Of a DNA stretch of 12,876 nucleotides, positions 448 to 12,283 are shown one piece after another. Source of the DNA: Spirochaetaceae bacterium (GTDB taxonomy: Bacteria > Spirochaetota > Spirochaetia > Treponematales > Treponemataceae); NCBI GenBank assembly GCA_031285525.1, contig JAITWB010000139.1:1-12876 (forward strand). The letters run 5' to 3'. Below the pieces are notes generated by a model. The model saw nothing but the letters and a program-made list of their open reading frames with translations. It was not told the origin of the DNA and did not search any database. Made by a program: the position numbers and the translations under genes. Within the stretch, counting starts at the first letter, position 1, and every line of letters begins with the position of its first letter.

Positions 448-476
448 ATGCAGCAGAGCTTCTTCTTTGCTCCCTG

Positions 477-501
477 CTCATTTCTACCTTCTCCCTTGTT
501 A
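477..501 (-). repeat. Purine-rich gene-end repeat, copy 1
   Basis: On the minus strand this reads TAACAAGGGAGAAGGTAG followed by AAATGAG. Its first three bases are the stop codon of the EF-G-like gene. Related copies lie at the ends of four other genes in the window (near 3999, 4083, 10414 and 12283). This copy stands alone, without an inverted partner, and is followed by the terminator at 408-447. Confidence 0.65.
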
Positions 502-2586
502 GTCTTCCGCCTGGAGCGACATAAACTCCTTCGCCGCCTTGATAACATCGTCGGCTATCTTGCCGGAGATAGGATCGTAGTGGTCAAAGGAGACTTCGAA
601 ACTGCCGGTTCCGCTGGTCATGGAACGGAGGTCGATGGAGTATTTCAGCAGCTCAGCCTGGGGCGCCTGAGCGCGGATCTCTTCGATACCGCCGCCGAGA
701 GGGCTTTGTCCCAGGATACGTCCCCGCTTTGAAGACATATCGGACATGATGTCGCCTAAGTACTGGGATTCGACCCAGATGGTTATGTTCATGATCGGTT
801 CCAGCAGGATGGGGCCGGCCTGACGGCAGGCTTCCCTAAAGGCATTGCGGGCGGCGATCTTGAAGGCCATTTCTGAGGAGTCTACCGGGTGCTCCTTACC
901 GTCGAGAACCGTAGCTGCCGTATCCACCACCGGATAGCCTGCAAGTACGCCGTGTTCCATAGCTTCTTTTACACCCTTTTCGATACCCGGAATATAGCCC
1001 TTGGATATGGCTCCCCCAAAGACCGCATTGGTAAAGCTGTACATTTCTCCCCGGGGCAGGGCTTCTACCGCAAGAACCACCCGTCCGTACTGGCCGTGAC
1101 CGCCGGATTGCTTCTTGTGGGTATATTCCGCTTGAGCCTTCCGCTGTATCGTCTCCCGATAGGCGATTCTCGGCACCGAAGTGATAACCTCTATTTTGTT
1201 TTGAGTCTTTATCCGGTTGAGGATGATGTTTATATGGAGTTCACCCATTCCTGAGATGACATTCTGCTTTGTTTCGCCATTGTACTTAAAGGTGAGAGTT
1301 CTATCGTCTTCCGAAGCCCTGAGGAGGAGTTCTCCCATCTTGTCCTCGTCCTTCTTCTCCTTCGCTGTAACCGCCATCGAATAGACCGGTTCGGGATGGC
1401 GCAGCCGTACACAGGGAAGTATGTCCTGAGCGCCGCCGAGGGTGTCGCTGGTTTTTGTCGCCGCCAGCTTTGCCGCTATACCGATATCTCCTGCGGTGAG
1501 CTGCCGAACCTCTTCCAGTTTCTTGCCCATGCAGCGGTAGAGCTTGCTTATCTTCTCTTTGCGGCCTTCGCTCACATTGAAGACTTCGGAGTCCGCATTG
1601 AGGGTTCCGGTGATGATCTTGAGGTAGGAAAGCCTTCCTGAGAACTGGTCGCTGGAGGTCTTTACCGTCAGAGCGGAGAATGTTCCCTCGGAATCTATCT
1701 TGACGGACATATCATTGCCTTCGGCATTGACAGTGACTTCGAAGGTTTCGCAGGGGTCTGGGGCGATGTCGGACATGAAATCGAGGAGGGTTTTCATTCC
1801 CGACCCCTGTATCGTGCTGCCGCAGAATATAGGAACGATCCGGTTGTTTTTGAAGGCGATCTGCAATCCCCGGATGATTTCTTCGGTGGTGAGCTCCCCT
1901 TCGTCTATGAATTTGACCAGCAGATCGTCGTCGCCCTCTGCAGCCGCTCCGGCGAGAACTGCCAGGGCGTTTTCGTATTCGCCCCGGTATTTTTCGGGGA
2001 TAGCCATTTCCGTCTCTTTCTGGCCGCTAGAAGGAACCGCATAGGCCTTGCCCTTGAGTACGTCGATGACCCCTTCAAAATCAGCGCCCTTTCCCATGGG
2101 AATAGACGCCTGGCAGACATCGACGCTGAATTTTTCACGGATATCCTTGGTGACCGCAGCGAAATCGGTGCGCTCCTCTTCAAGCCTGTTTATGTACACC
2201 ATTCGGGGCTTGTTGCGCCGGGTCAGATCCCGCCAGAGCTTGATAGTCTCTATCTGCGCTCCCGCCCTGCCGTCAACCAGCATCAGGGCGAACTCGGAGG
2301 AGCGGAAGGCGGAAATAACCTCGCCGATAAAGTCTGAGGAACCGGGAGTGTCCCATATATTGATATTGACATCCTTCCACGTCAGGTGGGAGAGGGCGGC
2401 GTAAATCGAAATCTTATGCTCTATTTCTTCGGGAGTAAAATCGCTGACCGTTTTACCGGATTCCACCGGCTCGGGACGGGGAATACTTCCGGCGGCAAAC
2501 AACAGCTGCTCCATCAGCGTCGTTTTTCCGGTCTGACCATGGCCTGCAATTGACACATTCCGTATCTGCTTCGTTGTAAAATCCAT
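499..2586 (-). CDS. Elongation factor G-like GTPase (EF-G2/FusA paralogue)
   Basis: This 695-residue protein has the full EF-G domain order: G domain, domain II from about residue 290, and domains III-V, with the domain IV signature KQSGGHGQYGRV and the C-terminal LRSMTSGTGSF. The P-loop is GHGQTGKT (15-22). G3 is DTPGSSDF (79-86), with Ser83 where canonical EF-G has the His needed for GTP hydrolysis; the Thermus EF-G-2 class has Tyr there. G4 is NRLE (133-136) instead of NKxD, and the switch I 'RGIT' is HKIS. These changes place it with the EF-G-like paralogues rather than the housekeeping FusA. It probably binds ribosomes and GTP, but its step in translation is unknown. The ATG at 2586 has AAGGAG six bases upstream. 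It is monocistronic, with promoter at 2626-2655 and terminator at 408-447. Confidence 0.93.
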   Translation of the reverse strand: MDFTTKQIRNVSIAGHGQTGKTTLMEQLLFAAGSIPRPEPVESGKTVSDFTPEEIEHKISIYAALSHLTWKDVNINIWDTPGSSDFIGEVISAFRSSEFALMLVDGRAGAQIETIKLWRDLTRRNKPRMVYINRLEEERTDFAAVTKDIREKFSVDVCQASIPMGKGADFEGVIDVLKGKAYAVPSSGQKETEMAIPEKYRGEYENALAVLAGAAAEGDDDLLVKFIDEGELTTEEIIRGLQIAFKNNRIVPIFCGSTIQGSGMKTLLDFMSDIAPDPCETFEVTVNAEGNDMSVKIDSEGTFSALTVKTSSDQFSGRLSYLKIITGTLNADSEVFNVSEGRKEKISKLYRCMGKKLEEVRQLTAGDIGIAAKLAATKTSDTLGGAQDILPCVRLRHPEPVYSMAVTAKEKKDEDKMGELLLRASEDDRTLTFKYNGETKQNVISGMGELHINIILNRIKTQNKIEVITSVPRIAYRETIQRKAQAEYTHKKQSGGHGQYGRVVLAVEALPRGEMYSFTNAVFGGAISKGYIPGIEKGVKEAMEHGVLAGYPVVDTAATVLDGKEHPVDSSEMAFKIAARNAFREACRQAGPILLEPIMNITIWVESQYLGDIMSDMSSKRGRILGQSPLGGGIEEIRAQAPQAELLKYSIDLRSMTSGTGSFEVSFDHYDPISGKIADDVIKAAKEFMSLQAED

Positions 2587-2625
2587 GAATACTCCTTAAT
2601 ATTTATCCGCAAATATATATCTACC

Positions 2626-2655
2626 ATGATAAGAGGGGTTTGGCGATATTGTCAA
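2626..2655 (-). promoter_or_regulatory. Promoter of the EF-G-like gene
   Basis: TTGACA (2650-2655) and TATCAT (2626-2631) are 18 bases apart on the minus strand, giving a leader of about 30 bases before the ATG at 2586. A second TTGACA lies upstream at 2692-2697, with GATAAT (2667-2672) at a long 19-base spacing. Both -35 boxes sit in the same context, TTGACAATAT, so a tandem promoter is possible. Confidence 0.65.
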
Positions 2656-2711
2656 GAAAATTATTTATTATCTCAATGTAACGAAAAATATTGTCAATAA
2701 AAAAAACATTG

Positions 2712-2732
2712 GTTACTATATATAGTAGTAAC
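2712..2732. promoter_or_regulatory. Inverted-repeat operator candidate
   Basis: GTTACTA (2712-2718) and TAGTAAC (2726-2732) form a perfect 7-bp inverted repeat with a 7-base centre. A perfect 12-bp palindrome, ACTATATATAGT (2715-2726), overlaps it. It occupies the -35/spacer zone of the plus-strand promoter that follows, as expected of a repressor site. It has the same 7-7-7 layout as the site before hicA. Confidence 0.4.
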
Positions 2733-2733
2733 G

Positions 2734-2742
2734 TGGTATAAT
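2734..2742 (+). promoter_or_regulatory. Extended -10 promoter of the coiled-coil gene
   Basis: TGGTATAAT is a consensus extended -10 element (TGn-TATAAT). No good -35 is present at 17-18 bases (TTACTA at best), which is usual for extended -10 promoters. The transcript would start near 2749, about 27 bases before the ATG at 2776. Confidence 0.65.
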
Positions 2743-2775
2743 AGCAGTCGATATGGATTGTACAGGAGGCACACG

Positions 2776-3999
2776 ATGGATATACGCCGCAGAACCATTC
2801 AGGAGCTGGAGATCAAACGGAATGATACACTCTCCGCCCTTACCCGTTTATATACTGCCGCAGGGAGAAAACTGCTCTCTGCCGAAACACGTTCTGCGGG
2901 AAGTTATTCCGTAGGAGAAGACCGGCTCGCCTCTTATCATGAAATAAACAGAAGAAGGGATGACTACTCCCGGATCATCACGGATATTCAGCAGTCCGCC
3001 GCCCGGCGTAAGGAACTGCAGGAGCAGTCTCAGGCGGTAAAGAAGCATATCGAAGAACTGAACGCTAAATGGCCCGAAGTGCTGGAAACCCTGGGAAGTG
3101 CACTGTACCTCCACTACCAGAGCTCGTTTACAGACTTTTTCGGCGTCTTTTTTACTGAAATTTCCGGGGAAAAAACCCTCCTCACCGAACAGCAGTCCCG
3201 GGCAGCGGCAATACAGAAGGAACTGGAATCTCAAGGTTTTTTCTCAAAGCTGGTCACCCAGATGAAGCTGGTTCCGGTAAACGCATCCATTACCCAGCTG
3301 ACCAAAAAGATCGGGGCTATCTACATAAAAGGCGCCAGAGCTGTACGGGATGCGGACTCCCTGCGTCCCTTTTACCAGGACGGAACTCTTGACAGCGGGA
3401 TTATTCAGGCGGATGAGCAATGCAACGCCCTGAGAAACGAAATCGAGGCGCAGCATGAATACCTTCAGTCCCTTATCGGGGAGGATGCAGGTTATGCGGC
3501 GCAGCTCTCCGCTGTCGGCGCGGATAATCCGACCAAGCGCATAGAGGAACTGCGTAAATACCTGAAACAGTACGACAGCGACATGGAAAACCTCTGCACC
3601 GAAACAGGCCGGATATACATAAACCGTTTTATCGACGAAAACGGCAACCCTCTTGGTTCTGAAAAGCCGGAAGCGGACATGCAGAAACACCTTTCTGAGG
3701 AACTCGTGCCTCAGGAGTTTTTTCCCGATGTTATGCAGAAGCGGAAAGCTATCATTTCCTATTCCCGCCGGATAGAGATCCTTGAACTCACCGGATATAT
3801 CGAAAAAACGGAAAAACAGATATCCTCACTGGAAGGCTCCGTTGCCGATGACGAACGAAAGATCCGCCAACTGAACGACCATATCCGGGATCTCAAGCGG
3901 AATATTGAGGTTTCGGGAGCGGAGAAGGAAGGTCTCATCGCAAAACGGGCGCAGCTGGAGCTTCTTGAAGGGGATACGGTTAAATTGTTGGGAAGGTAA
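2776..3999 (+). CDS. Coiled-coil protein of unknown function
   Basis: This 407-residue protein is not recognised as a known family. The ATG at 2776 was chosen because AGGAGG (2764-2769) lies six bases upstream; an in-frame TTG at 2758 would sit before the ribosome-binding site. The protein is charged and rich in Glu, Gln, Arg and Lys, with long helical stretches at about residues 48-95, 215-275 and 325-405 that look like coiled coils. These flank a less charged middle part (about 100-210) with several Phe and Tyr residues. No signal peptide or membrane segment is visible, so it is probably cytoplasmic, either a structural or scaffold protein or a partner of a larger complex. It has its own promoter with a palindromic site. 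The reading frame ends in GGAAGGTAAAAGGGAG, entering the purine-rich repeat shared with the opposing gene. Confidence 0.8.
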   Translation: MDIRRRTIQELEIKRNDTLSALTRLYTAAGRKLLSAETRSAGSYSVGEDRLASYHEINRRRDDYSRIITDIQQSAARRKELQEQSQAVKKHIEELNAKWPEVLETLGSALYLHYQSSFTDFFGVFFTEISGEKTLLTEQQSRAAAIQKELESQGFFSKLVTQMKLVPVNASITQLTKKIGAIYIKGARAVRDADSLRPFYQDGTLDSGIIQADEQCNALRNEIEAQHEYLQSLIGEDAGYAAQLSAVGADNPTKRIEELRKYLKQYDSDMENLCTETGRIYINRFIDENGNPLGSEKPEADMQKHLSEELVPQEFFPDVMQKRKAIISYSRRIEILELTGYIEKTEKQISSLEGSVADDERKIRQLNDHIRDLKRNIEVSGAEKEGLIAKRAQLELLEGDTVKLLGR

Positions 4000-4095
4000 A
4001 AGGGAGGAAAGAGAAAAGAGAAGGTAGAAAAGAGAAAAGAGTGTCTTCTTCTTTTCTACTTTATCCCTTCTATTTTCTCTTTTTACCTTCTCCCT
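3990..4095. repeat. Purine-rich gene-end repeat as an inverted pair (copies 2 and 3)
   Basis: A polypurine arm on the plus strand (3990-4041, with AGAAGGTAGAAAAGAG) is followed by a polypyrimidine arm (4045-4095). The reverse complement of the second arm, AGGGAGAAGGTAAAAAGAG, has the same character. The arms form an imperfect inverted repeat of roughly 100 bases spanning the 3' ends of two convergent genes. Each gene's TAA stop lies inside an arm in the same context, GGAAGGTAAAA on the plus strand and AGAAGGTAAAA on the minus strand. It may fold into a long hairpin acting on both transcripts. Confidence 0.6.
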
Positions 4096-4820
4096 AGCTC
4101 TTGCTCACTTCTGCCTATCCATTCCTTCCCCATGGTTTTCTTGAAATTGGAGTACATTTTAAGCGTTTTCTTCATATCACCGATGACTGCGGCGGCTTTT
4201 TCCTGTTCCCCTCTTTGAATGAGGGAGCGGACATAATAGTATCCTGCTTCAAAGTTGTTTGAACGGCTGTAGAGCTGCTCAAACTGTTCGAAAAGTTCTT
4301 CTCCTTCGGCTTCACGAACCAACAGTTTGAGGAGTTGTTCTTCAAAGGCGGTGAAGGGTTTTTCCTTCTCCAGATCGTCGAGAATTGTCCGGGCTTCGGT
4401 GATGCTGCCGTTATGGAAATACGACTCCGCCAGGGGGAAGAGGATGCTTCTGTCTTTTGCATAGGGGCCGGTGAGGCAGCTTTTGTAGAGGTCTATCGCT
4501 TCTGTGTACATCCCTGCGTTACCATAGGCCTCTGCGAGGAGGAGGCGGTTGCTTACCGTGTCCTGCATTGCCGTTTGTTCCTTGAGCCTGTTGATCTCGC
4601 CCATGGGGTTGATCGAGGAGACAAGCCTGTTACCCATGGTACGTACATTGGCGTTCCGGGACAGTCCGGGGAGTATTTCAACCAAAAAGTAAGCGATACC
4701 GCCGATATACGGAATCCAGATGATTACCAAGATCCAGTAATACGGGCGGCTATTTTTCATAATATGGATGATGAGGAGTAGTTGAATCACATAGGTTATG
4801 AGCATCAGGATAAAAGCCAT
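4083..4820 (-). CDS. Membrane-anchored TPR protein with PLDc_N-like N-terminus
   Basis: This 245-residue protein has two hydrophobic segments (about residues 3-20 and 28-48). The second, ILVIIWIPYIGGIAYFLVE, resembles the PLDc_N two-helix module found before phospholipase D/cardiolipin synthase domains and other cargo. No HKD catalytic motif follows. Instead there are tetratricopeptide-like helices: one near 91-124 (LLLAEAYGNAGMYTEAIDLY), one near 126-158, and a third near 188-215. The protein is likely held in the inner membrane with a cytoplasmic TPR domain that binds a partner. No Shine-Dalgarno precedes the ATG, but an extended -10 ends six bases upstream, suggesting a leaderless mRNA. 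The last residues (QELGRR) are encoded by the purine-rich gene-end repeat. The exact role is unknown. Confidence 0.8.
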   Translation of the reverse strand: MAFILMLITYVIQLLLIIHIMKNSRPYYWILVIIWIPYIGGIAYFLVEILPGLSRNANVRTMGNRLVSSINPMGEINRLKEQTAMQDTVSNRLLLAEAYGNAGMYTEAIDLYKSCLTGPYAKDRSILFPLAESYFHNGSITEARTILDDLEKEKPFTAFEEQLLKLLVREAEGEELFEQFEQLYSRSNNFEAGYYYVRSLIQRGEQEKAAAVIGDMKKTLKMYSNFKKTMGKEWIGRSEQELGRR

Positions 4821-4826
4821 GGGAGA

Positions 4827-4855
4827 AATATAGCATATAATTCACGTTATTTCCA
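4827..4855 (-). promoter_or_regulatory. Promoter placing the start of transcription at the ATG (TPR gene)
   Basis: TGGAAA (4850-4855), a 17-base spacer and an extended -10, TGCTATATT (core 4827-4832), lie directly before the gene. Only six bases separate the -10 from the ATG at 4820, so RNA should start at or next to the A of ATG. Together with the absence of a Shine-Dalgarno, this points to a leaderless transcript. Confidence 0.5.
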
Positions 4856-4891
4856 TCCTGTACTTGTTGCTGTGACAGTAGCGGTCTTTTC

Positions 4892-4921
4892 TTGACAAGT
4901 AGTACTTAATTGCAGTACTAT
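4892..4921 (+). promoter_or_regulatory. hicAB promoter
   Basis: TTGACA (4892-4897) is followed after 18 bases by TACTAT (4916-4921), which ends six bases before the hicA ATG at 4928. The predicted transcript starts at the ATG, and no Shine-Dalgarno is present, so hicA is likely translated from a leaderless mRNA. Confidence 0.6.
4900..4920. promoter_or_regulatory. Inverted-repeat operator of hicAB
   Basis: TAGTACT (4900-4906) and AGTACTA (4914-4920) form a perfect inverted repeat with a 7-base centre. The site lies between the -35 and -10 boxes and over the -10. It is the expected position for autorepression by HicB, whose C-terminal half looks like a ribbon-helix-helix DNA-binding domain. 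Confidence 0.6.
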
Positions 4922-4927
4922 TTATAC

Positions 4928-5182
4928 ATGAACAGCAAGAACCAAAAGACTTTAAATGGGATATTCAAAAATCCGGTACAGTCGCAGATTCTGTGGTCTG
5001 ATATAGAAACCCTTTTTGTTGAACTGGGGTGTGACATATCTGAAGGCGCTGGTTCAAGAATACGGGTAAAATTGAACGATGTCCGTGCAGTTTTTCACCG
5101 TCCGCATCCGCAGAAAACAACAGATAAAGGAGCAGTTGTTTCAGTAAGGAGATTCCTTCAAAATGCAGGAGTAAAGATATGA
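4928..5182 (+). CDS. hicA: HicA-family mRNA interferase toxin
   Basis: This 84-residue protein belongs to the small HicA/YcfA toxins, which adopt a double-stranded-RNA-binding-like fold and cleave mRNA until neutralised by HicB. It begins MNSKNQKTLNGIF, has a helix ending in LFVELGCDI, then GAGSRIRVKL, the motif FHRPHP (about 58-63), and ends in VRRFLQNAGVKI. Classical HicA has a catalytic His in GSH; here it is GSR, as I recall for the subfamily with FHRPHP, where the later His residues may serve. The ATG at 4928 was preferred over an in-frame TTG at 4910 that lies inside the promoter. The stop overlaps the hicB start (ATGA), coupling their translation. The cassette is AT-richer than its neighbours, which suits horizontal acquisition. 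Confidence 0.88.
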   Translation: MNSKNQKTLNGIFKNPVQSQILWSDIETLFVELGCDISEGAGSRIRVKLNDVRAVFHRPHPQKTTDKGAVVSVRRFLQNAGVKI

Positions 5183-5514
5183 TGGAATATAAGGGCTATC
5201 TGGGGAGTGTCACTTATGACGCAGACGCTCGATTGTTTCACGGTGATGTCATAAACACCCGTGATGTCATAACATTTCAGGGAACAACGGTAGATGAGAT
5301 AGAACAGGCTTTGAGGGATTCTATCGATGATTATATCGCATGGTGTAAAGAGGAGGGCGTTGAGCCTGAAAAGCCGTATTCCGGTAAATTCAATCTGAGA
5401 GTATCTCCTGAACTGCATAAAAAAATAGCAATAATAGCAAAGTCTCTGGATATGTCAATAAATAGTTTTGTTGAAAAAGCTCTGATAGACGAATTAGCCG
5501 CTTGTGCTCTCTGA
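5179..5514 (+). CDS. hicB: HicB-family antitoxin
   Basis: This 111-residue antitoxin starts MMEYKGYLGSVTYDADARLF. The N-terminal part (about 1-60) resembles the partial RNase H-like fold of HicB, with GDVINTRDVITFQG and the acidic helix TVDEIEQALRDSIDDYI. The C-terminal part (about 70-108, FNLRVSPELHKKI then MSINSFVEKALIDEL) is a ribbon-helix-helix domain likely to bind the operator at 4900-4920. The start overlaps the hicA stop by four bases and is preceded by AGGAG at 5166-5170; the second ATG at 5182 is an equally possible start. Expected role: bind and silence HicA and repress the operon. A strong terminator follows. Confidence 0.9.
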   Translation: MMEYKGYLGSVTYDADARLFHGDVINTRDVITFQGTTVDEIEQALRDSIDDYIAWCKEEGVEPEKPYSGKFNLRVSPELHKKIAIIAKSLDMSINSFVEKALIDELAACAL

Positions 5515-5523
5515 ACTTATTTA

Positions 5524-5571
5524 AATAAAAACAGGGCAGAAACCTATAAAAGATTCTGCCCTGTTTTTATT
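5524..5571. terminator. Bidirectional terminator between hicB and citrate synthase
   Basis: AATAAAAACAGGGCAGAA (5524-5541) and TTCTGCCCTGTTTTTATT (5554-5571) are perfect 18-bp complements around a 12-base loop. There is a T-run on one side and an A-run on the other. It serves both the plus-strand hicAB operon and the minus-strand citrate synthase gene (stop at 5617). Confidence 0.93.
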
Positions 5572-5616
5572 GTGAAGACTCGTCTTTGTGACGTGTTGCC
5601 TGTTAATAGCCCTGTG

Positions 5617-6975
5617 TTACCGTTTATCCATAGGGATGTATTCCCTGTTTTCTCCGACCTGTCTAAAGGCGGGGCGGTAGATTCTTCCTCCTGAGACGAT
5701 TTCTTCTATACGATGGGCTGCCCATCCGGCTACGCGGGAGATGGCGAAGATGGGGGTGAACAGTTCCCGGGGGATGTTGAGCATGGTGTAGACAAAGCCC
5801 GAGAAGAAGTCCACGTTGGTGCAGATTCGTTTGCCGTTGCCCTTGGCTTCCATGATGATCTGGGGCGCCAGTTGTTCGATGAGGCAATAGAGGTTGAATT
5901 CTTCGAGGCTGCCCTTGGCGGCGGCAAGTTCCCGCGCTTTGTCCCTGAGTAGGGTTGCACGGGGGTCGGAGACGGTGTAGACTGCGTGGCCCTGGCCGTA
6001 GATGAGTCCGGTGCGGTCGAAGGCGTCTTTTTGCAGTATCTTGCGGAGATAGTCTGAAATCTCCTTTTCGCTACTCCAGTCACGGACGTTTTCCTTGATG
6101 TCATCCATCATTTCCATGACCTTCATGTTTGCCCCTCCGTGGCGCCGTCCCTTGAGGGAGCCCACTGCGGCGGCAACTGCGGAGTAGGTGTCGGTGTCGG
6201 TGGAGGAGACCACGTGGATACAGAAAGAGGAGTTGTTACCCCCTCCGTGTTCGGCGTGGAGGATGAGGGAGAGGTCGAGGATTTCAGCCTCTAAGCGGTC
6301 ATAGCTCTTGTCCGCCCTGATGAGCCGGAGGAAGTTCTCTGCTGTGGAGAGTTCCGGGTCGGGGTTGTGGACGTACATGCTCTTGCCGTCGTAGTACCGC
6401 CGCTTTGCCTGGTATGCGTAGGCTACCAGCGAGGGGAACCGGGCGATGAGTTCTATGCACTGCCTGAGGACGTTGACGATGCTCACATCTTCAGGGTTTG
6501 AGTCGTAGGAATAGCTTGCCAGTACTCCCCGGGCAAGTTTGTTCATGATATCCGGGGAGGGGGCTTTCATGATCATGTCTTCGGTGAAGTCGCCGGGGAG
6601 GGAGCGCTTTTCTCCCAGGAAGGAGCGGAATTCCGCCAACTGGGAGGCTGAGGGAAGCTCTCCGAATATCAAGAGGTAGGCGGTCTGCTCGAAGGCGAAC
6701 TGGTCGTTTTGTTCGGCATCCTTGATGATGTCTTCAATGTCATATCCCCGGTAGATGAGTTTTCCCGGAACCGCTTTGGGTTTTCCGTCTATCATCTCAT
6801 AGCCGTGTACGTTACCGACCTTGGTGAGTCCTACCAGAACCCCCTTGCCGTCGGAGTCCCGGAGACCCCGCTTTACATCGTACTGCTGGTAGAGCTGGGG
6901 ATCTATGGGATCATTTATTTCTGCAATCTGCGCCAATTTAAGGATAACGTCTGTATCGTCCATATGTTCGGGCAT
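5617..6975 (-). CDS. gltA: Citrate synthase
   Basis: This protein condenses oxaloacetate and acetyl-CoA to citrate, probably feeding 2-oxoglutarate and glutamate synthesis in an anaerobe. With the start at 6975 it has 452 residues. The family's catalytic blocks are visible: LILHAEHGGGNNSS (237-250) with the first catalytic His, GRRHGGAN (277-283 region) with the second (His279), and NVDFFSG (387-392 region) with the catalytic Asp389. The substrate-binding Arg-rich C-terminal part includes GWAAHRIEE. The N-terminal extension before GKLIYRGYDI is longer than in the short citrate synthases. An upstream ATG at 7002 lacks a ribosome-binding site, whereas the ATG at 6975 has GAGG five bases before it, so 6975 is preferred. 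The promoter (7025-7051) contains a G7 tract. Confidence 0.93.
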   Translation of the reverse strand: MPEHMDDTDVILKLAQIAEINDPIDPQLYQQYDVKRGLRDSDGKGVLVGLTKVGNVHGYEMIDGKPKAVPGKLIYRGYDIEDIIKDAEQNDQFAFEQTAYLLIFGELPSASQLAEFRSFLGEKRSLPGDFTEDMIMKAPSPDIMNKLARGVLASYSYDSNPEDVSIVNVLRQCIELIARFPSLVAYAYQAKRRYYDGKSMYVHNPDPELSTAENFLRLIRADKSYDRLEAEILDLSLILHAEHGGGNNSSFCIHVVSSTDTDTYSAVAAAVGSLKGRRHGGANMKVMEMMDDIKENVRDWSSEKEISDYLRKILQKDAFDRTGLIYGQGHAVYTVSDPRATLLRDKARELAAAKGSLEEFNLYCLIEQLAPQIIMEAKGNGKRICTNVDFFSGFVYTMLNIPRELFTPIFAISRVAGWAAHRIEEIVSGGRIYRPAFRQVGENREYIPMDKR

Positions 6976-7024
6976 GGTAACCTCGTCTGTATATTTATGC
7001 ATTCACATACAATGCAGTGTAATA

Positions 7025-7051
7025 CTTATACAATATGGGGGGGAATGTCAA
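7025..7051 (-). promoter_or_regulatory. Citrate synthase promoter with a G7/C7 tract in the spacer
   Basis: On the minus strand TTGACA (7046-7051) is followed after only 15 bases by TATAAG (7025-7030). The spacer holds seven consecutive C residues (G7 on the plus strand, 7037-7043). The short spacing would weaken the promoter, and gain of one or two bases in the tract would bring it to the optimum. Confidence 0.5.
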
Positions 7052-7055
7052 GGTG

Positions 7056-7874
7056 TCATTGATACTGCTTGAGTCCTTCCCGGGAGAGTCCTGCCAGTAA
7101 TTCGATGTATCCGCGGATGGGGCTCGCCTGTATTTTGGGGATGAGTACTTCTTCGACCTGGAAGAAGCCGACGTCGCTGGTCATGAGGATTTCTATGCGG
7201 ATGGGTTTTTCGAGTCCCTTTATGAGGGATACCGATTCGATGGAGTGGGAGGAGTATTTGTGGATGTCTCCGACCTTGGGTTCTCTGCTGAGGGTCATGG
7301 GGATTCGGGCGCGGCCTTTTTCCATGTCGCAGCCGTCGGCGATGAGGATGACTCCCGCTTCTATCGAGTGTATTTTGTGGATTCCCATGTGACCCGCTAT
7401 GCCTTCGACGGCGAGGGAGCGGATGACGCTTTGTTGAGGGATATTTCCCGGGTAGAGGATTGCCAAAAGCCTGTCCAGTATGGGGATGGCGAGATTTATG
7501 CCGAATATCTCATGATCCTGCCTTCCGACGGTCATGCCGATGTCGTGGAGGAAGGCGGCGCAGATGACTGCTGTGAGGCTGTCGTCGAAGGTGCCGATCT
7601 TTTCCTTTTGGAGGGATGTCTGAATATCCGCATCCCGGAGTAGGGACATCATGTGGATGGCGTTATGGGTGACCGTTTTCATGTGCACCGGTCCGTGGTC
7701 GTTATATCCGAGCCTGACAATACTGACGTTGTTGGCGTAATCCTGCAGCGCCTTTACCTGTTCATCCTGTATCAGCAGTTCCGCAGCCTTGAGGGCATTT
7801 CCTTCTGCTGAAAGCAGGGAGAGGAGTTTTTTCTCCAGCGACAGTTCTTTAGGCGATTTATCTGAGTGTTTCAT
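7056..7874 (-). CDS. HD-domain phosphohydrolase
   Basis: This 272-residue protein (from the ATG at 7874) belongs to the HD superfamily of metal-dependent phosphohydrolases. Candidate metal ligands are His60/His64 (NDHGPVH), the pair His110-Asp111 (AAFLHDIGM) and Asp180 in ADGCDMEKGRARIP. The last motif is similar to archaeal-type HD proteins with 'AD..D..KGRARI'. Helices before residue 60 may form a small N-terminal domain, and the C-terminal 60 residues include a predicted beta-strand region (IEILMTSDVGFFQVEEVLIP). The substrate is not evident. An upstream in-frame ATG at 7910 would add a hydrophobic tail but overlaps the -35 box, so 7874 is preferred. It lacks a Shine-Dalgarno and a -10 ends seven bases upstream, suggesting a leaderless mRNA. 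Citrate synthase follows but has its own promoter. Confidence 0.8.
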   Translation of the reverse strand: MKHSDKSPKELSLEKKLLSLLSAEGNALKAAELLIQDEQVKALQDYANNVSIVRLGYNDHGPVHMKTVTHNAIHMMSLLRDADIQTSLQKEKIGTFDDSLTAVICAAFLHDIGMTVGRQDHEIFGINLAIPILDRLLAILYPGNIPQQSVIRSLAVEGIAGHMGIHKIHSIEAGVILIADGCDMEKGRARIPMTLSREPKVGDIHKYSSHSIESVSLIKGLEKPIRIEILMTSDVGFFQVEEVLIPKIQASPIRGYIELLAGLSREGLKQYQ

Positions 7875-7881
7875 ACATACA

Positions 7882-7910
7882 AATATAGAACAAAAAAGGG
7901 GCAAAGTCAT
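7882..7910 (-). promoter_or_regulatory. Promoter placing transcription start at the ATG (HD gene)
   Basis: ATGACT (7905-7910), a 17-base spacer and TATATT (7882-7887) are followed after seven bases by the ATG at 7874. RNA should begin within a base of the start codon. Confidence 0.45.
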
Positions 7911-7960
7911 TACAGTAGTGGAAAAAGAGAGCGAGACCGCTTGTTCGAGTAGGAATGAAG

Positions 7961-8029
7961 ATGGGTATCTACGTGTGACGTAGACGGGTATCTATGTGTG
8001 GCGTAGACGGGTATCTATGTGTGGCGTAT
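7961..8029. repeat. Three-copy 23-bp tandem repeat (minisatellite)
   Basis: The unit ACGGGTATCTATGTGTGGCG followed by TAG/TAT is present at 7961-7983, 7984-8006 and 8007-8029. Copies 2 and 3 differ only in the last base; copy 1 has three changes. It fills most of the gap between the end of the ATP-grasp gene and the HD gene promoter. Confidence 0.85.
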
Positions 8030-8040
8030 TGCATTTGGGG

Positions 8041-8973
8041 TTAGAATGAAGAGACAAAGTAGAGCAGCGGTTCCGCTATAGCTATTCCGGTTTGTTTTTC
8101 CAGTTCCTCAAAGCCCGGGGAGGCGTTGAGTTCGCAGACGGCGAGCTCGGTTTGGCTCTTCCAGATGAAGTCTACGGTGCCGTAGGGTAATTGCGCCTTG
8201 GCGGCTATATCCAGAGCCATGTCTCGGTATTTTTGCGGAAAACAAGTTCCTTGCGGAAAGTCTGTTTCTGAAGAGAACTGAACTGGGCGAACGGTGCCGC
8301 CGGAGGAGCTGTTGGAGAGGATGCACTGTACAGCGCCGCTCTTTTCAGAGCCGCTTTGTCCCTGCCGTTCAACCGCAGCGAGGATTTCGCCGCCGCATAT
8401 GAAGACTCTGAGGTCTTTGCCGGGGGCGTAGGAGAGGTATTCCTGAAGAAGATAGTCCTCTGTCCCTTCCCGGTGCAGTTTTTCTGTAAAGGTATGCAGC
8501 TCTTCCGATGAGCGGAGGAGGGTGACGCCCCGGCCTCTGCTGCCGAAGACGGGTTTCGCTATGATGGGGTAGGGGAAGTCCGCTTCGACGGTTGGTAGGG
8601 AATTACTCAGTATTCCCAGGGTTTGAGGCGCTGGATAGTTGTTTTCTGCGAGAAAGCGCGCCGTTACTGTTTTGTCGTCGCAGATTTTCCGGCAGAACCG
8701 GGTGTTGGTGTGGGGGATGCCCGCTGTTTCGAGGGCGGTAAAGACCTCATCCGGTACGCTGCCCCGAACGAGAATCCGGTGATTCCGGTATGATCCGCTT
8801 TTGTATAGTCTGAGAAAGTCCATGGGCAGGAGTACTTCTACCGGGATGCGGAGCGCGGCTCCTGCTTCGAGAAAGCGTTTGACGGGGTAAAAAGAGCGTA
8901 TCCACTGGTAGTCAGTCGTGGCGAGTCCGTAGATAAGGAGTACGGGCGCTTTTAGCGCAGGCGCTTGCAACAC
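8041..8973 (-). CDS. RimK-like ATP-grasp ligase
   Basis: This 310-residue protein has the ATP-grasp architecture of the RimK/glutamate-ligase group, which joins a carboxylate to an amine through an acyl phosphate. A Rossmann-like N-terminal part covers residues 1-95. The ATP-grasp part follows: DDKTVTARFLAENNYPAPQT (99-118), the glycine-rich loop IIAKPVFGSRGRGV (137-150), the adenine-contacting LLQEYL (175-180), LRVFICGGE, and the metal-binding VDFIW (Asp268) and ELNASPGFEELE (Glu281, Asn283). The substrate is unknown. The start is GTG at 8973, four bases after the stop of the upstream 184-residue gene, with no clear Shine-Dalgarno, so translational coupling is likely. A Ser/Gly-rich stretch (205-226) replaces the usual 'R.N...GG' lid region. 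It could instead modify a small molecule or peptide. Confidence 0.85.
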   Translation of the reverse strand: MLQAPALKAPVLLIYGLATTDYQWIRSFYPVKRFLEAGAALRIPVEVLLPMDFLRLYKSGSYRNHRILVRGSVPDEVFTALETAGIPHTNTRFCRKICDDKTVTARFLAENNYPAPQTLGILSNSLPTVEADFPYPIIAKPVFGSRGRGVTLLRSSEELHTFTEKLHREGTEDYLLQEYLSYAPGKDLRVFICGGEILAAVERQGQSGSEKSGAVQCILSNSSSGGTVRPVQFSSETDFPQGTCFPQKYRDMALDIAAKAQLPYGTVDFIWKSQTELAVCELNASPGFEELEKQTGIAIAEPLLYFVSSF

Positions 8974-8976
8974 TTT

Positions 8977-9531
8977 TTAGTTCTGTTTTATTTCCATTGT
9001 CTCATGTATGGTCGAAGAGATCAGCTTGGCGAGTTTTTTCGCATCTATTAGGGGAACATTAGCTTCCCTGTTGAGGGTTTTTTCGAAAAAGAGCGCCATT
9101 ACGTCGTAGACTTCCGGGATCATGTAGAATATGAAGGCAAAGTTCATGCCTTCGGGCTTGAGGACGGTAAAGGAGGTCATCACATCCTGGGGGATTTTGT
9201 TGTACATGACCCGGTATTGGTTTTTTGTGGTATAGATGTTGAGGTCGTTGAAGCGGAGGGGGATCTTGTCTTTGCTGGAACGGACATAGGGCTCTACTGC
9301 TTTCTGGTTGTAAGATGAGGGTTCTACGAGGACGTACATTTTCTTACCGTTGGTTTGAAAGGTGATGCCTTCTCCTGTCAGGTAAAAACTCTTAACTGCA
9401 GCATAGGAGACTATCTCATAAATGGAATAAGCTGAGGCCGGTGAAAAAAACGATGAGACAATGTAGCCGTGATCCTTGGGGAGTCGATTTTGGTTGTATG
9501 CGTCATACAGATCCATTGCACGTATTGCCAT
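8977..9531 (-). CDS. Conserved-looking hypothetical protein, first gene of the ATP-grasp operon
   Basis: This 184-residue protein was not recognised. The ATG at 9531 was chosen because GGAGG (9540-9544) lies eight bases upstream; the longer open frame to 9588 would begin inside the promoter. It starts MAIRAMDLYDAYNQNRLPKD and is soluble, aromatic-rich and mixed alpha/beta. A central run of short strands (YVLVEPSSYN, LNIYTTKNQYRVMYNKIP) is followed by FAFIFYMIPEVYDVMALFF, hydrophobic but broken by charges, and then a C-terminal helix. The ATP-grasp gene starts four bases downstream, so the two are one operon and may act in the same modification reaction, for example as scaffold or substrate-binding partner. 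That link is inference from position only. Confidence 0.75.
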   Translation of the reverse strand: MAIRAMDLYDAYNQNRLPKDHGYIVSSFFSPASAYSIYEIVSYAAVKSFYLTGEGITFQTNGKKMYVLVEPSSYNQKAVEPYVRSSKDKIPLRFNDLNIYTTKNQYRVMYNKIPQDVMTSFTVLKPEGMNFAFIFYMIPEVYDVMALFFEKTLNREANVPLIDAKKLAKLISSTIHETMEIKQN

Positions 9532-9559
9532 GTACAGTTCCTCCAGTAAACTTGTGAAA

Positions 9560-9588
9560 AGTATATCCCACATTTCGGTAAAATGCAA
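9560..9588 (-). promoter_or_regulatory. Promoter of the 184-aa gene/ATP-grasp operon
   Basis: TTGCAT (9583-9588) and TATACT (9560-9565) are 17 bases apart. Transcription would start near 9553, giving a leader of about 22 bases that carries the GGAGG site. Confidence 0.6.
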
Positions 9589-9590
9589 AT

Positions 9591-9627
9591 AAAAAAGGCT
9601 GTCGATTATATAATCGGCAACCTTTTT
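9591..9627 (-). terminator. Terminator of the efp transcript
   Basis: AAAAAGGCTGTCGATT (9592-9607) pairs with AATCGGCAACCTTTTT (9612-9627) with one wobble and one mismatch. The core is the perfect palindrome CGATTATATAATCG. A and T runs flank it on both sides. It separates efp (stop at 9651) from the promoter of the next minus-strand operon. Confidence 0.8.
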
Positions 9628-9650
9628 CGTGAACTTGAGCGACAGATATA

Positions 9651-10214
9651 CTAGTTATTCACCCGTTCAACATATTCGTTGGTTTCGGTGTTTACCATGA
9701 CCTTTTCATCCTGTTTGATGAACAGGGGAACCCGGACGGTGAGTCCTGTTTCTGTTACGATAGGCTTGGTTGCGCCGGAAACCGTGTCTCCCCGGACATA
9801 GTTTTCGCTTTCTGCAACAACAAATACCATTTTCTGGGGGATCTTTACGTCGATGGGGTTTCCTTCCCAGATGAGGATGGGGTATTCCTGCCCTTCTTTT
9901 AGGTAGTACTTGAGGGTGTCGTTCAGCCCTTCCGGTACGTTGATGGTTTCAAATGACGCAATGTCCATGAAAACGTGGTTTTCGCCGTCACTGTACTGGT
10001 ACTGTCCGTCGTGTGTGTCCACGGTGGCATCTTCAACGTTATCCTGGGTCTTTATCGTCTGTGTGAGTACCGAACCATCTTTGAGGTTCTTCATCTTCAC
10101 ACGGGCAAAGGCTGAGCCTTTACCGGGGTTTACAAATTCACGTTCAACAACGAGGTAGGGTGAGTTCTTTATAAGCAGAACACTTCCCTTTGCGATATCG
10201 CCGCCTCTTATCAT
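9651..10214 (-). CDS. efp: Elongation factor P
   Basis: This 187-residue protein has the full EF-P length and three beta-barrel domains: KOW-like residues 1-64, OB domain from about 68 (DATVDTHDGQYQYSDGENHVFMD), and C-terminal OB with VRGDTVSGATKPIVTETGLT and VPLFIKQDEKVMVNTET. EF-P binds the ribosome between P and E sites and relieves stalling at consecutive prolines. The domain I tip reads NPGKGSAFARV, with Lys32 in the position of the E. coli Lys34 that EpmA lysylates, so a modified-lysine type is likely. No modification gene is visible in the window; the nearby ATP-grasp ligase is a different family. The ATG at 10214 has AGAGG about eight bases upstream, and promoter and terminator flank it as a single-gene unit. 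Confidence 0.96.
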   Translation of the reverse strand: MIRGGDIAKGSVLLIKNSPYLVVEREFVNPGKGSAFARVKMKNLKDGSVLTQTIKTQDNVEDATVDTHDGQYQYSDGENHVFMDIASFETINVPEGLNDTLKYYLKEGQEYPILIWEGNPIDVKIPQKMVFVVAESENYVRGDTVSGATKPIVTETGLTVRVPLFIKQDEKVMVNTETNEYVERVNN

Positions 10215-10247
10215 TTTTGTTACCTCTTCTCATACAAATTCAGCCAC

Positions 10248-10276
10248 AGTATAGCGTTTTTCCCGGCTCTTGACTA
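10248..10276 (-). promoter_or_regulatory. efp: Promoter of efp
   Basis: TAGTCA (10271-10276) and TATACT (10248-10253) are 17 bases apart, about 34 bases upstream of the ATG. The -35 box touches the left end of the purine-rich inverted repeat that follows deoC. Confidence 0.55.
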
Positions 10277-10415
10277 GGGAGGGGAGGGAAATAGAAAATA
10301 GAAAAGAGAAGGGAGAAAAGGAAGTCCCTCAGTTTTCGATATCTCGAACTCCTATTCCAACATCCCGGAAGTCCTTCCTCCCTTTTCTCATTTCTACCTT
10401 CTCATTTCTACCTTG
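10275..10415. repeat. Purine-rich gene-end repeat as an inverted pair (copy 4) overlapping the deoC end
   Basis: A plus-strand polypurine arm (10275-10323, GGGAAATAGAAAATAGAAAA then GAGAAGGGAG) faces a polypyrimidine arm (10370-10415). The right arm carries two exact tandem copies of CTCATTTCTACCTT (10387-10400 and 10401-10414), the same words found in the copies at 477 and 12257. The arms are imperfect inverted repeats around a 45-base centre that includes a small palindrome, TTCGATATCTCGAA. The right arm and centre lie inside the deoC reading frame. Confidence 0.6.
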
Positions 10416-11114
10416 TACTATGCTGATTCCGGCGGAGAATCCCAGTCTGTCTGCTCCGGCGTTGAGCATTGCCAGGGCGGTGTCGAGATCCCTGATGCCG
10501 CCGGAGGCTTTGACCCGCATGGAGGCGCCGACGGTTTTCTTCATGAGGGATACATCCGATACAGTAGCGCCTGCGGGTAGGGGGTTGCCGGATGCATCGT
10601 TGCCGGGGGCGCCGAAACCGGTGGAGGTTTTGACGAAATCCGCTCCTGCTTGTTTCGCTGCGAGGCAGGCGGCTTCTTTTTCTGCATCCGTGAGGTAGCA
10701 GGTTTCTATGATGACCTTGACTATGGCGGTTATGCCTGTTCTCTCTTGAGCTTCCCGCACCGCTTCGACCACAGCCCGTATGTCCGCCTCTACTGCGCTC
10801 AGATCGCCGTTTTTAAGGGCGCCGATGTTGATGACCATATCGACTTCCCTGGCGCCCTGGAGGACGGCATGGGAGGCTTCTGCCGCTTTGATACCGGTGG
10901 CGTTTGCGCCTAAGGGAAAGCCTATAACCGTACAGACTGCAACGCCGCTGCCTTCAAGTTCCCGAACTGCTAGGGGAACCCAGCAGGGGTTGATGCATAC
11001 GGAGTAAAAGCCGTATTCCCGGGCTTCGGCGCAGAGTTTTACGATGTCCTCTTTGACTGCCGTTGCCTTGAGCTGTGTGTGATCGATTGTTTTTGCCAGT
11101 GTTTCTGTGTTCAT
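10329..11114 (-). CDS. deoC: Deoxyribose-phosphate aldolase
   Basis: DeoC cleaves 2-deoxyribose-5-phosphate to glyceraldehyde-3-phosphate and acetaldehyde in deoxynucleoside catabolism. The 261-residue protein shows the class I aldolase TIM-barrel motifs: IDHTQLK (10-16), the proton-relay Asp92 in EVDMVINIG, the Schiff-base Lys162 in VKTSTGFG and Lys202 in VKASGGIR. Compared with usual DeoC, about ten residues ([12 protein letters not shown] region) are inserted after STGFG. The normal fold ends near ISIVQG (235). The last 26 residues, starting [15 protein letters not shown], are strongly basic and encoded by the purine-rich repeat, so they look like an acquired tail. The ATG has AAGGA seven bases upstream. 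The gene lies 27 bases after the Rpn gene with no clear promoter, so readthrough from it is likely. Confidence 0.95.
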
Positions 11115-11141
11115 GTTTTGTTCCTTTATAAAGCAATAATA

Positions 11142-11999
11142 CTATTTTTTATCCTTATCCGATGAAAGCCTTGCTTCAATTTCGTCTGTAGAAAGTCCCT
11201 GATGCAATAATTCGAGAAAATAGTTCCTTTCTTCTTCACGACCTTCTTCTCTCGCTTCTTCCTGCCAGACTTCTTTTGCGACATCCCAATTCCACTCGGT
11301 TATTAACATATTCGTTACCTCCGATGCGTTCTTTTCAAGAAACTCTTTCAATATATCATGTTCAAGACAGTATAGAATGGCTTTTTTAACAGCTTCTTCA
11401 TGACTCATCCCTAAACGTTCATACTCCCGTACCTTCGCTATAAAGGCACCGTATTCATAGAGTGTTCTACACTTTTTCGCTATTTCTTCGTTTTGCCCTT
11501 CATTGATATTGATAACCCGGACTTCAAGCTCCAGGGAGGGGGAAACGATGCTTTGGTTTGCTTTTTCTGGGGTTCCGAGGGAGCTTATATCTTCAAAGGC
11601 ATCTGACAGTTTTAACCGCTTCTCGTTAGGGTAAGGCTCTTTGCCATTGTACAGTACAAAAAACTCAGGACGGGGGATTTTTACCTGTTGTGATGAGTAA
11701 ATTTTCCTGTCACTTACTGTTTTTTCGTAGATTCGGGCAATGTACATGAGCAGTCGGAGCGCCATGTTTGGGTTTATCGTTGATTGATGCTCGATAACTA
11801 CGACTATTTTTCCATCTATTTCAAAAGAAAGGTCGTTAATTTTGTCCATATACAAAACATCTTGCAGAGTGTTTATTGTTATGGGCGTGTCTTTTGGTAG
11901 TTCTATTCCTTCAAGGGCATAATAAAGTTCCCGTAAGATATCGGGGTTATTGAAGATAAAAGAAAAAACGCTGCTTTTATATTTTAGGTTTGTACTCAC
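11142..11999 (-). CDS. Rpn family recombination-promoting nuclease / putative transposase (PD-(D/E)XK)
   Basis: This 285-residue protein matches the family annotated as 'T_den_put_tspse' or Rpn, related to E. coli RpnA DNA endonucleases and abundant in Treponema. It starts MSTNLKYKSSVFSFIFNNPD. The nuclease core carries Asp56 (NDLSFEIDGK) and Glu70/Gln72 (VVVIEHQS), then MALRLLMYIARIYEK. The C-terminus has the typical charged repeat EEAREEGREEERNYFLELL and a final helix, GLSTDEIEARL. The start is GTG at 11999 with AGGAGG seven bases upstream. It is AT-richer than deoC. No terminal repeats or second transposition gene flank it, so it looks like a resident accessory nuclease rather than a complete mobile element. 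Confidence 0.88.
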   Translation of the reverse strand: MSTNLKYKSSVFSFIFNNPDILRELYYALEGIELPKDTPITINTLQDVLYMDKINDLSFEIDGKIVVVIEHQSTINPNMALRLLMYIARIYEKTVSDRKIYSSQQVKIPRPEFFVLYNGKEPYPNEKRLKLSDAFEDISSLGTPEKANQSIVSPSLELEVRVININEGQNEEIAKKCRTLYEYGAFIAKVREYERLGMSHEEAVKKAILYCLEHDILKEFLEKNASEVTNMLITEWNWDVAKEVWQEEAREEGREEERNYFLELLHQGLSTDEIEARLSSDKDKK

Positions 12000-12032
12000 G
12001 TCACATCCTCCTGCCTATTGCACTATGAGGAA

Positions 12033-12061
12033 AGTATACCACGAAAACCTCCTCAAAGCAA
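12033..12061 (-). promoter_or_regulatory. Promoter of the Rpn gene
   Basis: TTGCTT (12056-12061), a 17-base spacer and the extended -10 TGGTATACT (core 12033-12038) lie upstream of the GTG start. The predicted leader of about 27 bases contains the AGGAGG site. Confidence 0.6.
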
Positions 12062-12110
12062 CAAATGAGCGCCTACGCCCACGTTCGTTTCATAAACAGA
12101 GAATCCTTCA

Positions 12111-12256
12111 CATTCCACATGGAATCCCGTCCATTCTACATGGAATCTTGTTCATTCCACATGGAATCCCGTCCATTCCACATGGAATCTTGTCCATTCC
12201 ACATGGAATCCTCTCCATTCTACATGGAATCCGTCACATTCCATGTAGAATCTCCC
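12111..12256. repeat. Seven-unit 21-bp tandem array with palindromic cores
   Basis: Seven contiguous units begin at 12111, 12132, 12153, 12174, 12195, 12216 and 12237. Each has the core ATTC(C/T)ACATGGAAT, an inverted repeat with ATTCC/GGAAT arms, then a variable C/T-rich heptamer. In the seventh unit the core is ATTCCATGTAGAAT, the exact reverse complement of the core in units 2 and 6. The unit length is a multiple of three, so the array stays open in several frames. There is no spacer diversity or cas gene. The array ends directly against the purine-rich element at 12257-12283. Confidence 0.9.
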
Positions 12257-12283
12257 TTTTACCTTCTCATTTCTCCCTTGTTA
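12257..12283 (-). repeat. Purine-rich gene-end repeat, copy 5
   Basis: On the minus strand this reads TAACAAGGGAGAAATGAG and then AAGGTAAAA. As in copy 1, the first three bases are the stop codon of the gene it follows, here the beta-helix protein. It is a solo copy and runs straight into the 21-bp array. Confidence 0.6.

What the first reader, a model, noticed from the sequence alone, without database searches (positions are those of the whole stretch)
477..12283. A dispersed purine-rich element sits at the 3' ends of five genes and supplies stop codons and C-terminal residues
Variants of AGGGAGAAGGTAGAAATGAG (gene-sense strand) occur at 477-501, 3990-4041, 4045-4095, 10370-10415 and 12257-12283. 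Two copies start exactly at the gene's stop codon (TAACAAGGGAG at 501 and 12283). Two contain the TAA in a shared GAAGGTAAAA context (3999, 4083), and one is read through in deoC. Orientation always follows the gene, including the one plus-strand gene. Chance low-complexity sequence would not track gene ends and strand this way. It could be a gene-end-targeting mobile repeat, an mRNA 3'-end stability or processing signal, or a protein or RNA binding site. I know of no described family with these properties.
Basis: partly seen in the sequence, partly recalled or inferred. Interest (0 to 1): 0.75.

Follow-up and report, generated by a model that had tools for sequence, protein, structure and literature searches.

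The report
Seven-base repeat arrays at stop codons
Short runs of a seven-base repeat sit right at the stop codons of several genes in this spirochaete fragment; they belong to a little-studied but already described kind of bacterial repeat, and two related genomes show that such runs really do settle at gene ends in one orientation.

Summary
The element is not a 20-mer but a short tandem array of a degenerate heptanucleotide, AA[AG][AGT][GT]A[AG]. There are six arrays, not five; the missed one (E, + strand) is antisense and forms an inverted pair with D, as C does with B. Four of six begin within -15..+5 nt of a same-strand stop (0 of 200,000 random, 1 of 200,000 random-intergenic placements reach four). 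D begins where deoC's Pfam domain ends. Five array-free homologues end 0 to 2 residues from the array-bearing genes, so arrays sit at native stops. The same sense-at-stop rule is in print for heptamers of Xanthomonas and Nostoc, so 'no described family' is wrong. New here: a spirochaete lineage, units unable to form G-quadruplexes, and filled/empty sites. Most likely: selfish or neutral arrays spread by slippage/template switching, tolerated because their own stops end the gene.

The parts
463..497 (-). Array A: 5 heptads, begins 1 nt after the EF-G stop TAA (499-501); followed by an intrinsic-terminator-like hairpin at 448-407
   Evidence: absent at the same gene end in the sister L001
3993..4041 (+). 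Array B: 7 heptads; the gene's stop TAA (3997-3999) lies in the first heptad; first arm of an inverted pair with C
   Evidence: the sister gene in L070 ends at the same codon without an array
4049..4095 (-). Array C: 5 heptads by scan (4049-4083), about 6.5 with its 5' end extended by hand to 4095; supplies GRR and the stop TAA (4083-4085) of the TPR gene; second arm of B/C
   Evidence: homologues P0003 and P0004 end one residue earlier
10380..10414 (-). Array D: 5 heptads, read through by deoC; starts right after the end of the DeoC domain match (residue 234 of 261)
10274..10322 (+).
12252..12279 (-). Array F: 4 heptads, begins 1 nt after the stop TAA (12281-12283); followed by a 21-bp palindromic tandem repeat

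Best explanation
The features are six copies of a lineage-specific family of short tandem heptanucleotide arrays (unit AA[AG][AGT][GT]A[AG]), of the same kind as the heptameric intergenic repeats of Xanthomonas, Nostoc and Beggiatoaceae. Shown in this window and in relatives: they are tandem, share unit variants between loci, lie at the native stop codon of a gene on the sense strand, can differ by whole heptads between related species, and often form inverted pairs. Inferred: copies spread by slippage and by microhomology-guided template switching from existing arrays, landing at stop codons because the unit itself resembles a gene end (a codon ending in AG, or a purine run, followed by TAG, TGA or TAA). 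An array overrunning a stop in sense orientation is tolerated because its own TAG/TGA/TAA usually ends the protein within a few residues, so the copies are mostly neutral or selfish 3'-UTR sequence. In the mRNA they form a purine-rich spacer between stop codon and terminator, or, when paired, a hairpin.
For: Heptad register and excess over shuffles. Window placement: 4 of 6 arrays within -15..+5 of a same-strand called stop, reached by 0 of 200,000 random and 1 of 200,000 random-intergenic placements. In 1.56 Mb of two related genomes 50 arrays at threshold 24, against 2 with the reversed profile (the profile was trained on hits in the same sequence; the untrained profile gave 40 against 10 in G188 alone). 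After removing 5 orthologous duplicates, 22 of 45 have the 5' edge at -16..+4 of a same-strand stop against 4.0% of random intergenic placements; the antisense equivalent is 1 of 45 (null 3.9%). Between convergent genes 9 of 11 are closer to the sense gene. Five of the 45 begin 1-4 nt after the stop, where the array cannot have created the stop. Five array-free homologues of array-bearing genes end 0, 0, 0, -1 and -2 residues from them. One clean filled/empty pair at a native stop (site 32) and two in which the surrounding intergenic DNA also differs (sites 37, 14/29). A 21-nt (three-heptad) length difference between orthologous arrays (site 3/44). Inverted pairs: 16 of the 50 arrays, paired by eye from the coordinates.
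Against: The template-switching step is inferred. Heptad-likeness of eight homologous stops without these arrays is ordinary (7 of 8 score 5 of 7; 66% of 785 genes without array score at least 5); only a codon ending in AG before the stop is suggestive (4 of 8 against 12% of genes). Site 32 inserts about 190 nt, more than the array, so some arrays may travel as part of a larger element. In a diverse IMG/VR sample polarity is weak (27 of 41 closer to the 5' gene, P 0.03). Tolerance alone does not explain why antisense arrays just behind a stop are so rare. The genome-scale tests come from other species, not the window's host, and dense arrays are uncommon in the relatives searched.
Confidence: 0.6

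Rival explanations
1. The arrays are selected 3'-UTR elements: a purine spacer and/or hairpin that helps transcription end or protects mRNA 3' ends, hence sense orientation and the place between stop and terminator.
For: Array A lies between the stop and a strong terminator-like hairpin. The B/C RNA folds at -44.7 kcal/mol, z -3.67, 0 of 200 shuffles as good. Strong sense bias in G188/G113.
Against: D/E is not more stable than shuffles (z -1.23; 18 of 200 as good). By eye 34 of 50 arrays have no inverted partner. By reading, T/G variation at unit position 5 gives G-A rather than G-U mismatches between arms (not counted with a tool). Two gene ends of the sister bin lack arrays. Rehm et al. could not identify a role in gene regulation.
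Confidence: 0.2
2. A gene-end-targeting mobile element (REP/RAYT-like or MITE-like) whose end is the heptad array.
For: Site 32 is an insertion of about 190 nt exactly at the stop; several G188/G113 arrays are followed by a GGGGGAAGTCTCCCCC-like hairpin segment. Inverted pairs recall BIMEs.
Against: G113 and G124 carry arrays but have no Y1_Tnp hit, the RAYT domain (completeness of these assemblies is not told). No target-site duplication was evident by eye at site 32. In the window the arrays share no downstream segment that I could see. Array length varies by whole heptads.
Confidence: 0.13
3. Fail-safe stop cassettes: 7-nt spacing puts a stop codon into every frame behind the gene.
For: Each of the six window arrays carries at least two sense stop triplets; 23 of 50 arrays in G188/G113 have stops in all three sense frames against 21% of shuffled arrays.
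Against: 0 of 6 window arrays have stops in all three sense frames. The Xanthomonas unit GGGAATC has no sense stop codon (from its sequence), yet shows the same placement.
Confidence: 0.05
4. Purine-rich low-complexity intergenic DNA, placed by chance.
For: The window arrays are 89-96% purine, and the reversed control profile also scores three places in the window.
Against: Heptad phase, shuffles, placement tests, and similar behaviour of arrays that are on average only 71% purine in G188/G113.
Confidence: 0.02

Closest known systems
GGGAATC (Xanthomonas) and GGGGA(T/C)T (Nostoc) heptameric repeats, Rehm et al. 2015, PMC4692102 (abstract, passages and Discussion seen)
   Same: 7-nt tandem unit, mostly intergenic, within 50 bp of the stop on the sense strand including overlap of the stop, some inverted pairs, length variation between related species, unrelated gene functions
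   Different: Their units form G-quadruplexes in vitro; none of the 6 window arrays or 50 G188/G113 arrays matches a quadruplex pattern. Their second preferred place (antisense, just upstream of a start) was not enriched here (5 of 45 against 10.5% expected)
TAACTGA direct repeats of Beggiatoaceae, Cyanobacteria and Bacteroidetes, MacGregor 2015, PMC4679880 (abstract and passages seen)
   Same: Heptamer, stop codons in all frames of the forward reading, some sets overlap gene ends; the G188/G113 unit CAGTTAG has the reverse complement CTAACTG, that is (TAACTGC)n, one base from TAACTGA
   Different: Most sets in that genome lie just upstream of start codons; other units
STRR heptanucleotide repeats of heterocystous cyanobacteria (recalled; only the term was seen, as counts in the search listing)
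   Same: Degenerate 7-nt tandem repeats between genes
   Different: Other units, other phylum; the stop-codon rule is not recalled for them
REP/BIME elements with RAYT transposases (recalled)
   Same: Gene-end, intergenic, inverted pairs
   Different: REP units are single palindromes; here the unit is a heptad without a palindrome, and two array-bearing genomes gave no Y1_Tnp hit

Membership tests
Heptameric intergenic tandem repeats (Rehm et al. 2015 kind) | Tandem 7-nt unit | tested here: met
Heptameric intergenic tandem repeats (Rehm et al. [quoted passage not shown]
   window 4 of 6 within -15..+5; 22 of 45 in G188/G113 against 4%
Heptameric intergenic tandem repeats (Rehm et al. 2015 kind) | Also just upstream of starts on the antisense strand | tested here: not met
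   5 of 45, null 10.5%; window E starts 59 nt (hand-set edge) or 73 nt (scan) upstream of the efp start on its antisense strand, a single case
Heptameric intergenic tandem repeats (Rehm et al. 2015 kind) | G-quadruplex-forming unit GGGAATC or GGGGA(T/C)T (feature of that subfamily) | tested here: not met
   0 of 6 and 0 of 50 arrays match G3 or G2 quadruplex patterns
[quoted passage not shown]
   units seen differ; placement; no separate search for TAACTGA was run
REP/BIME with RAYT | RAYT (Y1_Tnp) gene in the genome | tested here: not met
   of five genomes searched, array-bearing G113 and G124 have no hit, G188 and G162 one each, array-free G001 three; the host genome cannot be tested
MITE / transposon | Fixed ends and target-site duplication | tested here: inconclusive
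   one clean filled/empty site (32, insert about 190 nt, no duplication evident by eye) and two where the intergenic DNA is replaced as a whole (37, 14/29)
Known structured RNA (Rfam 15) | Match above gathering score | tested here: not met
   0 matches in the window

The most novel reading that the evidence does not exclude
A general, enzyme-dependent or replication-linked process builds heptanucleotide arrays outward from native stop codons on the sense strand in unrelated bacteria. Period (7) and strand polarity, not the unit's sequence, G-quadruplexes or stop content, are the conserved property, and inverted pairs arise when two such arrays meet in one intergenic gap. A hint: 3 of the 10 reversed-profile hits in G188 are a different heptad (GAAAATG type) that also lies 0-6 nt behind a same-strand stop.
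Probability: 0.15. Interest if true: 0.75.

Novelty: new member of a known kind. Interest (0 to 1): 0.42.

Why it matters
Heptameric intergenic repeats have been discussed in terms of G-quadruplexes (Xanthomonas, Nostoc) or regulator binding (Beggiatoa). The spirochaete arrays studied here follow the same stop-codon and strand rule without matching any quadruplex pattern, so quadruplex formation is unlikely to be the general reason for that placement. Related species with filled and empty sites make the origin question testable: insertion at native stops versus selection after random spread. For annotation, such arrays alter C-termini (DeoC here runs 28 residues beyond its SIV motif, where 34 relatives inspected end at most 15 beyond).

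Tried and rejected
The 17-mer with one mismatch was found in 1 of 145 family genomes, and exactly at 1 place in viral contigs, which looks like an ordinary coding stretch of a phage contig with no repeat. The degenerate AARDKAR x4 pattern (1 mismatch) hit 66 of 274 family genomes, but its backward-read control hits too (for example G188 12 against 8) and many matches are A-rich sequence; I therefore used a trained profile with a reversed-profile control. That control is not a pure null: some of its hits are a second heptad family, also at stops. AARDKAG x4 hit 6 of 392 phylum genomes. The sister genome G001 (1.5 Mb) has no match.

Stop cassettes, quadruplexes and Rfam families were tested and not supported; heptad-like target stops were tested and are not exceptional. 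The IMG/VR sample (62 stretches, 70 arrays; dropped: 15 inside ORFs of at least 80 aa, 11 at contig edges, 3 duplicates; 41 left) gives only weak polarity. ORFs come from simple callers of my own, so single distances may be off; a gene whose stop lies beyond the middle of the array is not counted as its left neighbour, which lowers the sense-at-stop count. In one search, 11 of 50 arrays lie inside a called ORF and 1 at a contig edge; they stay in the denominator, where ORFs containing an array were ignored for the observed arrays. The 40 stretches, and the family-genome arrays listed, were read but not put through the placement test. Homologue L351 of array gene 12 (9 residues longer) was dropped from the array-free set because its tail is itself heptad-coded. 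The protein search for deoC scored only the 7,998 candidates sharing most words.
Full report
What is there. The window is a complete 12,876-bp contig: for its TPR protein and its DeoC protein the database lists this contig as the only one. The nearest relative found is a Spirochaetaceae metagenome bin, Mx356_bin16, whose EF-G is 91% identical and whose coiled-coil protein is 77% identical; the next EF-G hits, about 75%, are named Treponema or Spirochaetaceae. Genes include EF-G, a TPR protein, a HicA/HicB pair, citrate synthase and deoC (Pfam), a coiled-coil protein without Pfam match, and efp (named by me from its sequence, not searched). The purine-rich stretches are not copies of a 20-mer but tandem heptads in register: A AAGGGAG-AAGGTAG-AAATGAG-CAGGGAG-CAAAGAA; B AAGGTAA-AAGGGAG-GAAAGAG-AAAAGAG-AAGGTAG-AAAAGAG-AAAAGAG; D AAGGTAG-AAATGAG-AAGGTAG-AAATGAG; F AAGGGAG-AAATGAG-AAGGTAA-AAGGGAG; C and E likewise, each with one 6-nt unit in my hand parse. 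Tandem Repeats Finder independently reports periods 7, 14 and 21 (and one 20) in four of these stretches, B, C, D and E.

Chance. Three heptads with up to one mismatch occur 18 times in six clusters, 0.01 expected; four heptads with up to two mismatches 14 times, 0 expected.

Placement in the window. A and F start one base after the stop codon; B and C hold the stop in their first or second heptad; D starts where the DeoC domain match ends (residue 234 of 261, 228 of 229 profile positions). About 11 of DeoC's last 27 residues are array-coded, the rest lie beyond the array. The 34 deoC relatives printed end at most 15 residues beyond the matching point. The sister's EF-G end has no array, and its coiled-coil gene ends at the same codon (GDTVKLLEE in place of GDTVKLLGR) without an array. 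Four of six arrays lie within -15..+5 nt of a same-strand called stop; none of 200,000 random sets and one of 200,000 random intergenic sets did as well. The edges of C and E used there were set by hand; the scan edge of C (4083) also lies inside that range.

Test in other genomes. A first degenerate pattern pointed to family genomes with related heptads, though with a noisy control. I sampled 800 kb of G188 and 762 kb of G113. Two of the four G113 stretches first compared align to G188 at about 94%, and orthologous flanks of arrays at 87-98%, others lower or unmatched. A profile trained on the arrays ([CA]A[GA]T[TG]AG) finds 50 arrays at threshold 24 against 2 with the same profile reversed. 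With my gene calls, 20 arrays lie between co-directional genes in sense, 7 in antisense, 11 between convergent genes, none between divergent genes, 11 inside called ORFs and 1 at an edge. Five of the seven antisense arrays belong to an inverted pair. Orthologous duplicates removed, 22 of 45 have the 5' edge at -16..+4 of a same-strand stop; random intergenic placement gives 4.0%; the mirror-image antisense position has 1 of 45; the antisense position upstream of starts is not enriched (5 of 45, null 10.5%). By eye there are eight inverted pairs (16 arrays; one pair is orthologous to another), with gaps from -2 to 39 nt.

Native stops. A sense array inside a gene would always look like a gene end, because the unit often carries a stop codon. 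Two results speak against this as the explanation. Five of the 45 arrays begin 1-4 nt after the stop. For five array-bearing genes, array-free homologues end 0, 0, 0, -1 and -2 residues from them (25 sense-end arrays were queried, 17 had any homologue in the loaded sequence, and several of those carry an array themselves). Direct comparisons show the same: site 32, GAG TAA empty and GAG TAG TGAGAAG filled, a clean insertion of about 190 nt; site 37, CAG TAA and CAG TGA GAAGTGAG, with the rest of the intergenic region also different; site 14/29, GAA GCC TAA and GAA GTT AGC AAT TAG, likewise. Orthologous arrays at site 3/44 differ by 21 nt, that is three heptads. By its sequence a deoC gene of G113 also ends in an array close to the matching place, with a different unit.

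What it does not do. No array matches a G-quadruplex pattern (0 of 6, 0 of 50). No window array has stops in all three sense frames. RNA folding favours the B/C hairpin (z -3.67) but not D/E (z -1.23). No Rfam family matches. Two array-bearing genomes gave no hit for the RAYT domain.

Known kind. Rehm et al. 2015 (PMC4692102; abstract and passages; Discussion) describe heptameric repeats in Xanthomonas and Nostoc that lie within 50 bp of stop codons on the sense strand, overlap stops, sometimes pair invertedly and differ in length between related species; they could not assign a function. MacGregor 2015 (PMC4679880; abstract; passages) describes TAACTGA heptamers, points out their stops in all three frames, and reports sets overlapping gene ends. 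The paper searches listed no report of such arrays in spirochaetes that I recognised from titles and abstracts; only open-licence PubMed Central text was searched.

Mechanism. Shown: tandem heptads, shared unit variants across loci, location at native stops on the sense strand, a whole-heptad length change, inverted pairing. Inferred: spread by slippage and microhomology-guided template switching, and tolerance because the array's own stop codons replace the native one at little cost. The microhomology step rests on 4 of 8 homologous stops preceded by a codon ending in AG against 12% of genes and is weak. Why antisense arrays directly behind a stop are so rare is not explained by tolerance alone and is the most interesting open point. 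A second heptad type at stops in G188 (3 of 10 reversed-profile hits) hints that the place and period matter more than the unit.

Noticed in passing
12101-12254: A 21-bp palindromic tandem repeat (CATTCCACATGGAATCCCGTC type, about 7 copies) directly follows array F; it folds into strong hairpins.
   Followed up: partly
7959-8028: Three copies of a 23-bp tandem repeat (AGACGGGTATCTATGTGTGGCGT) upstream of an HD-like gene (Pfam HD just below cut-off).
   Followed up: no
4910-5514: HicA/HicB-type toxin-antitoxin pair (Pfam).
   Followed up: no
11142-11999: A YhgA-like (PF04754) putative transposase gene.
   Followed up: no
L190:3875-4118: An IMG/VR contig with (AAGGTAG)n followed by an inverted (CTACTTT)n array between two genes, the same architecture as B/C.
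   Followed up: partly
L186, L191, L174: Other viral-collection contigs with two or more heptad arrays at stop codons within 5-10 kb; hosts not identified.
   Followed up: partly
G188:C20 12907-12940 (+), C44 158186-158227 (+), C44 158714-158755 (+): A second heptad type (GAAAATG/GAAAATT), found by the reversed control profile, also begins 0-6 nt behind same-strand stops; the homologue L351 ends in a tail coded by the same type.
   Followed up: partly
G188/G113 (for example G188:C44:151725-151960): Several heptad arrays in these genomes are followed by a GC-rich hairpin segment (GGGGGAAGTCTCCCCC type), perhaps a separate small repeat family.
   Followed up: partly
L070:1063-1213: The sister bin has a 55-bp tandem repeat upstream of its EF-G gene, not seen in the window.
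   Followed up: no
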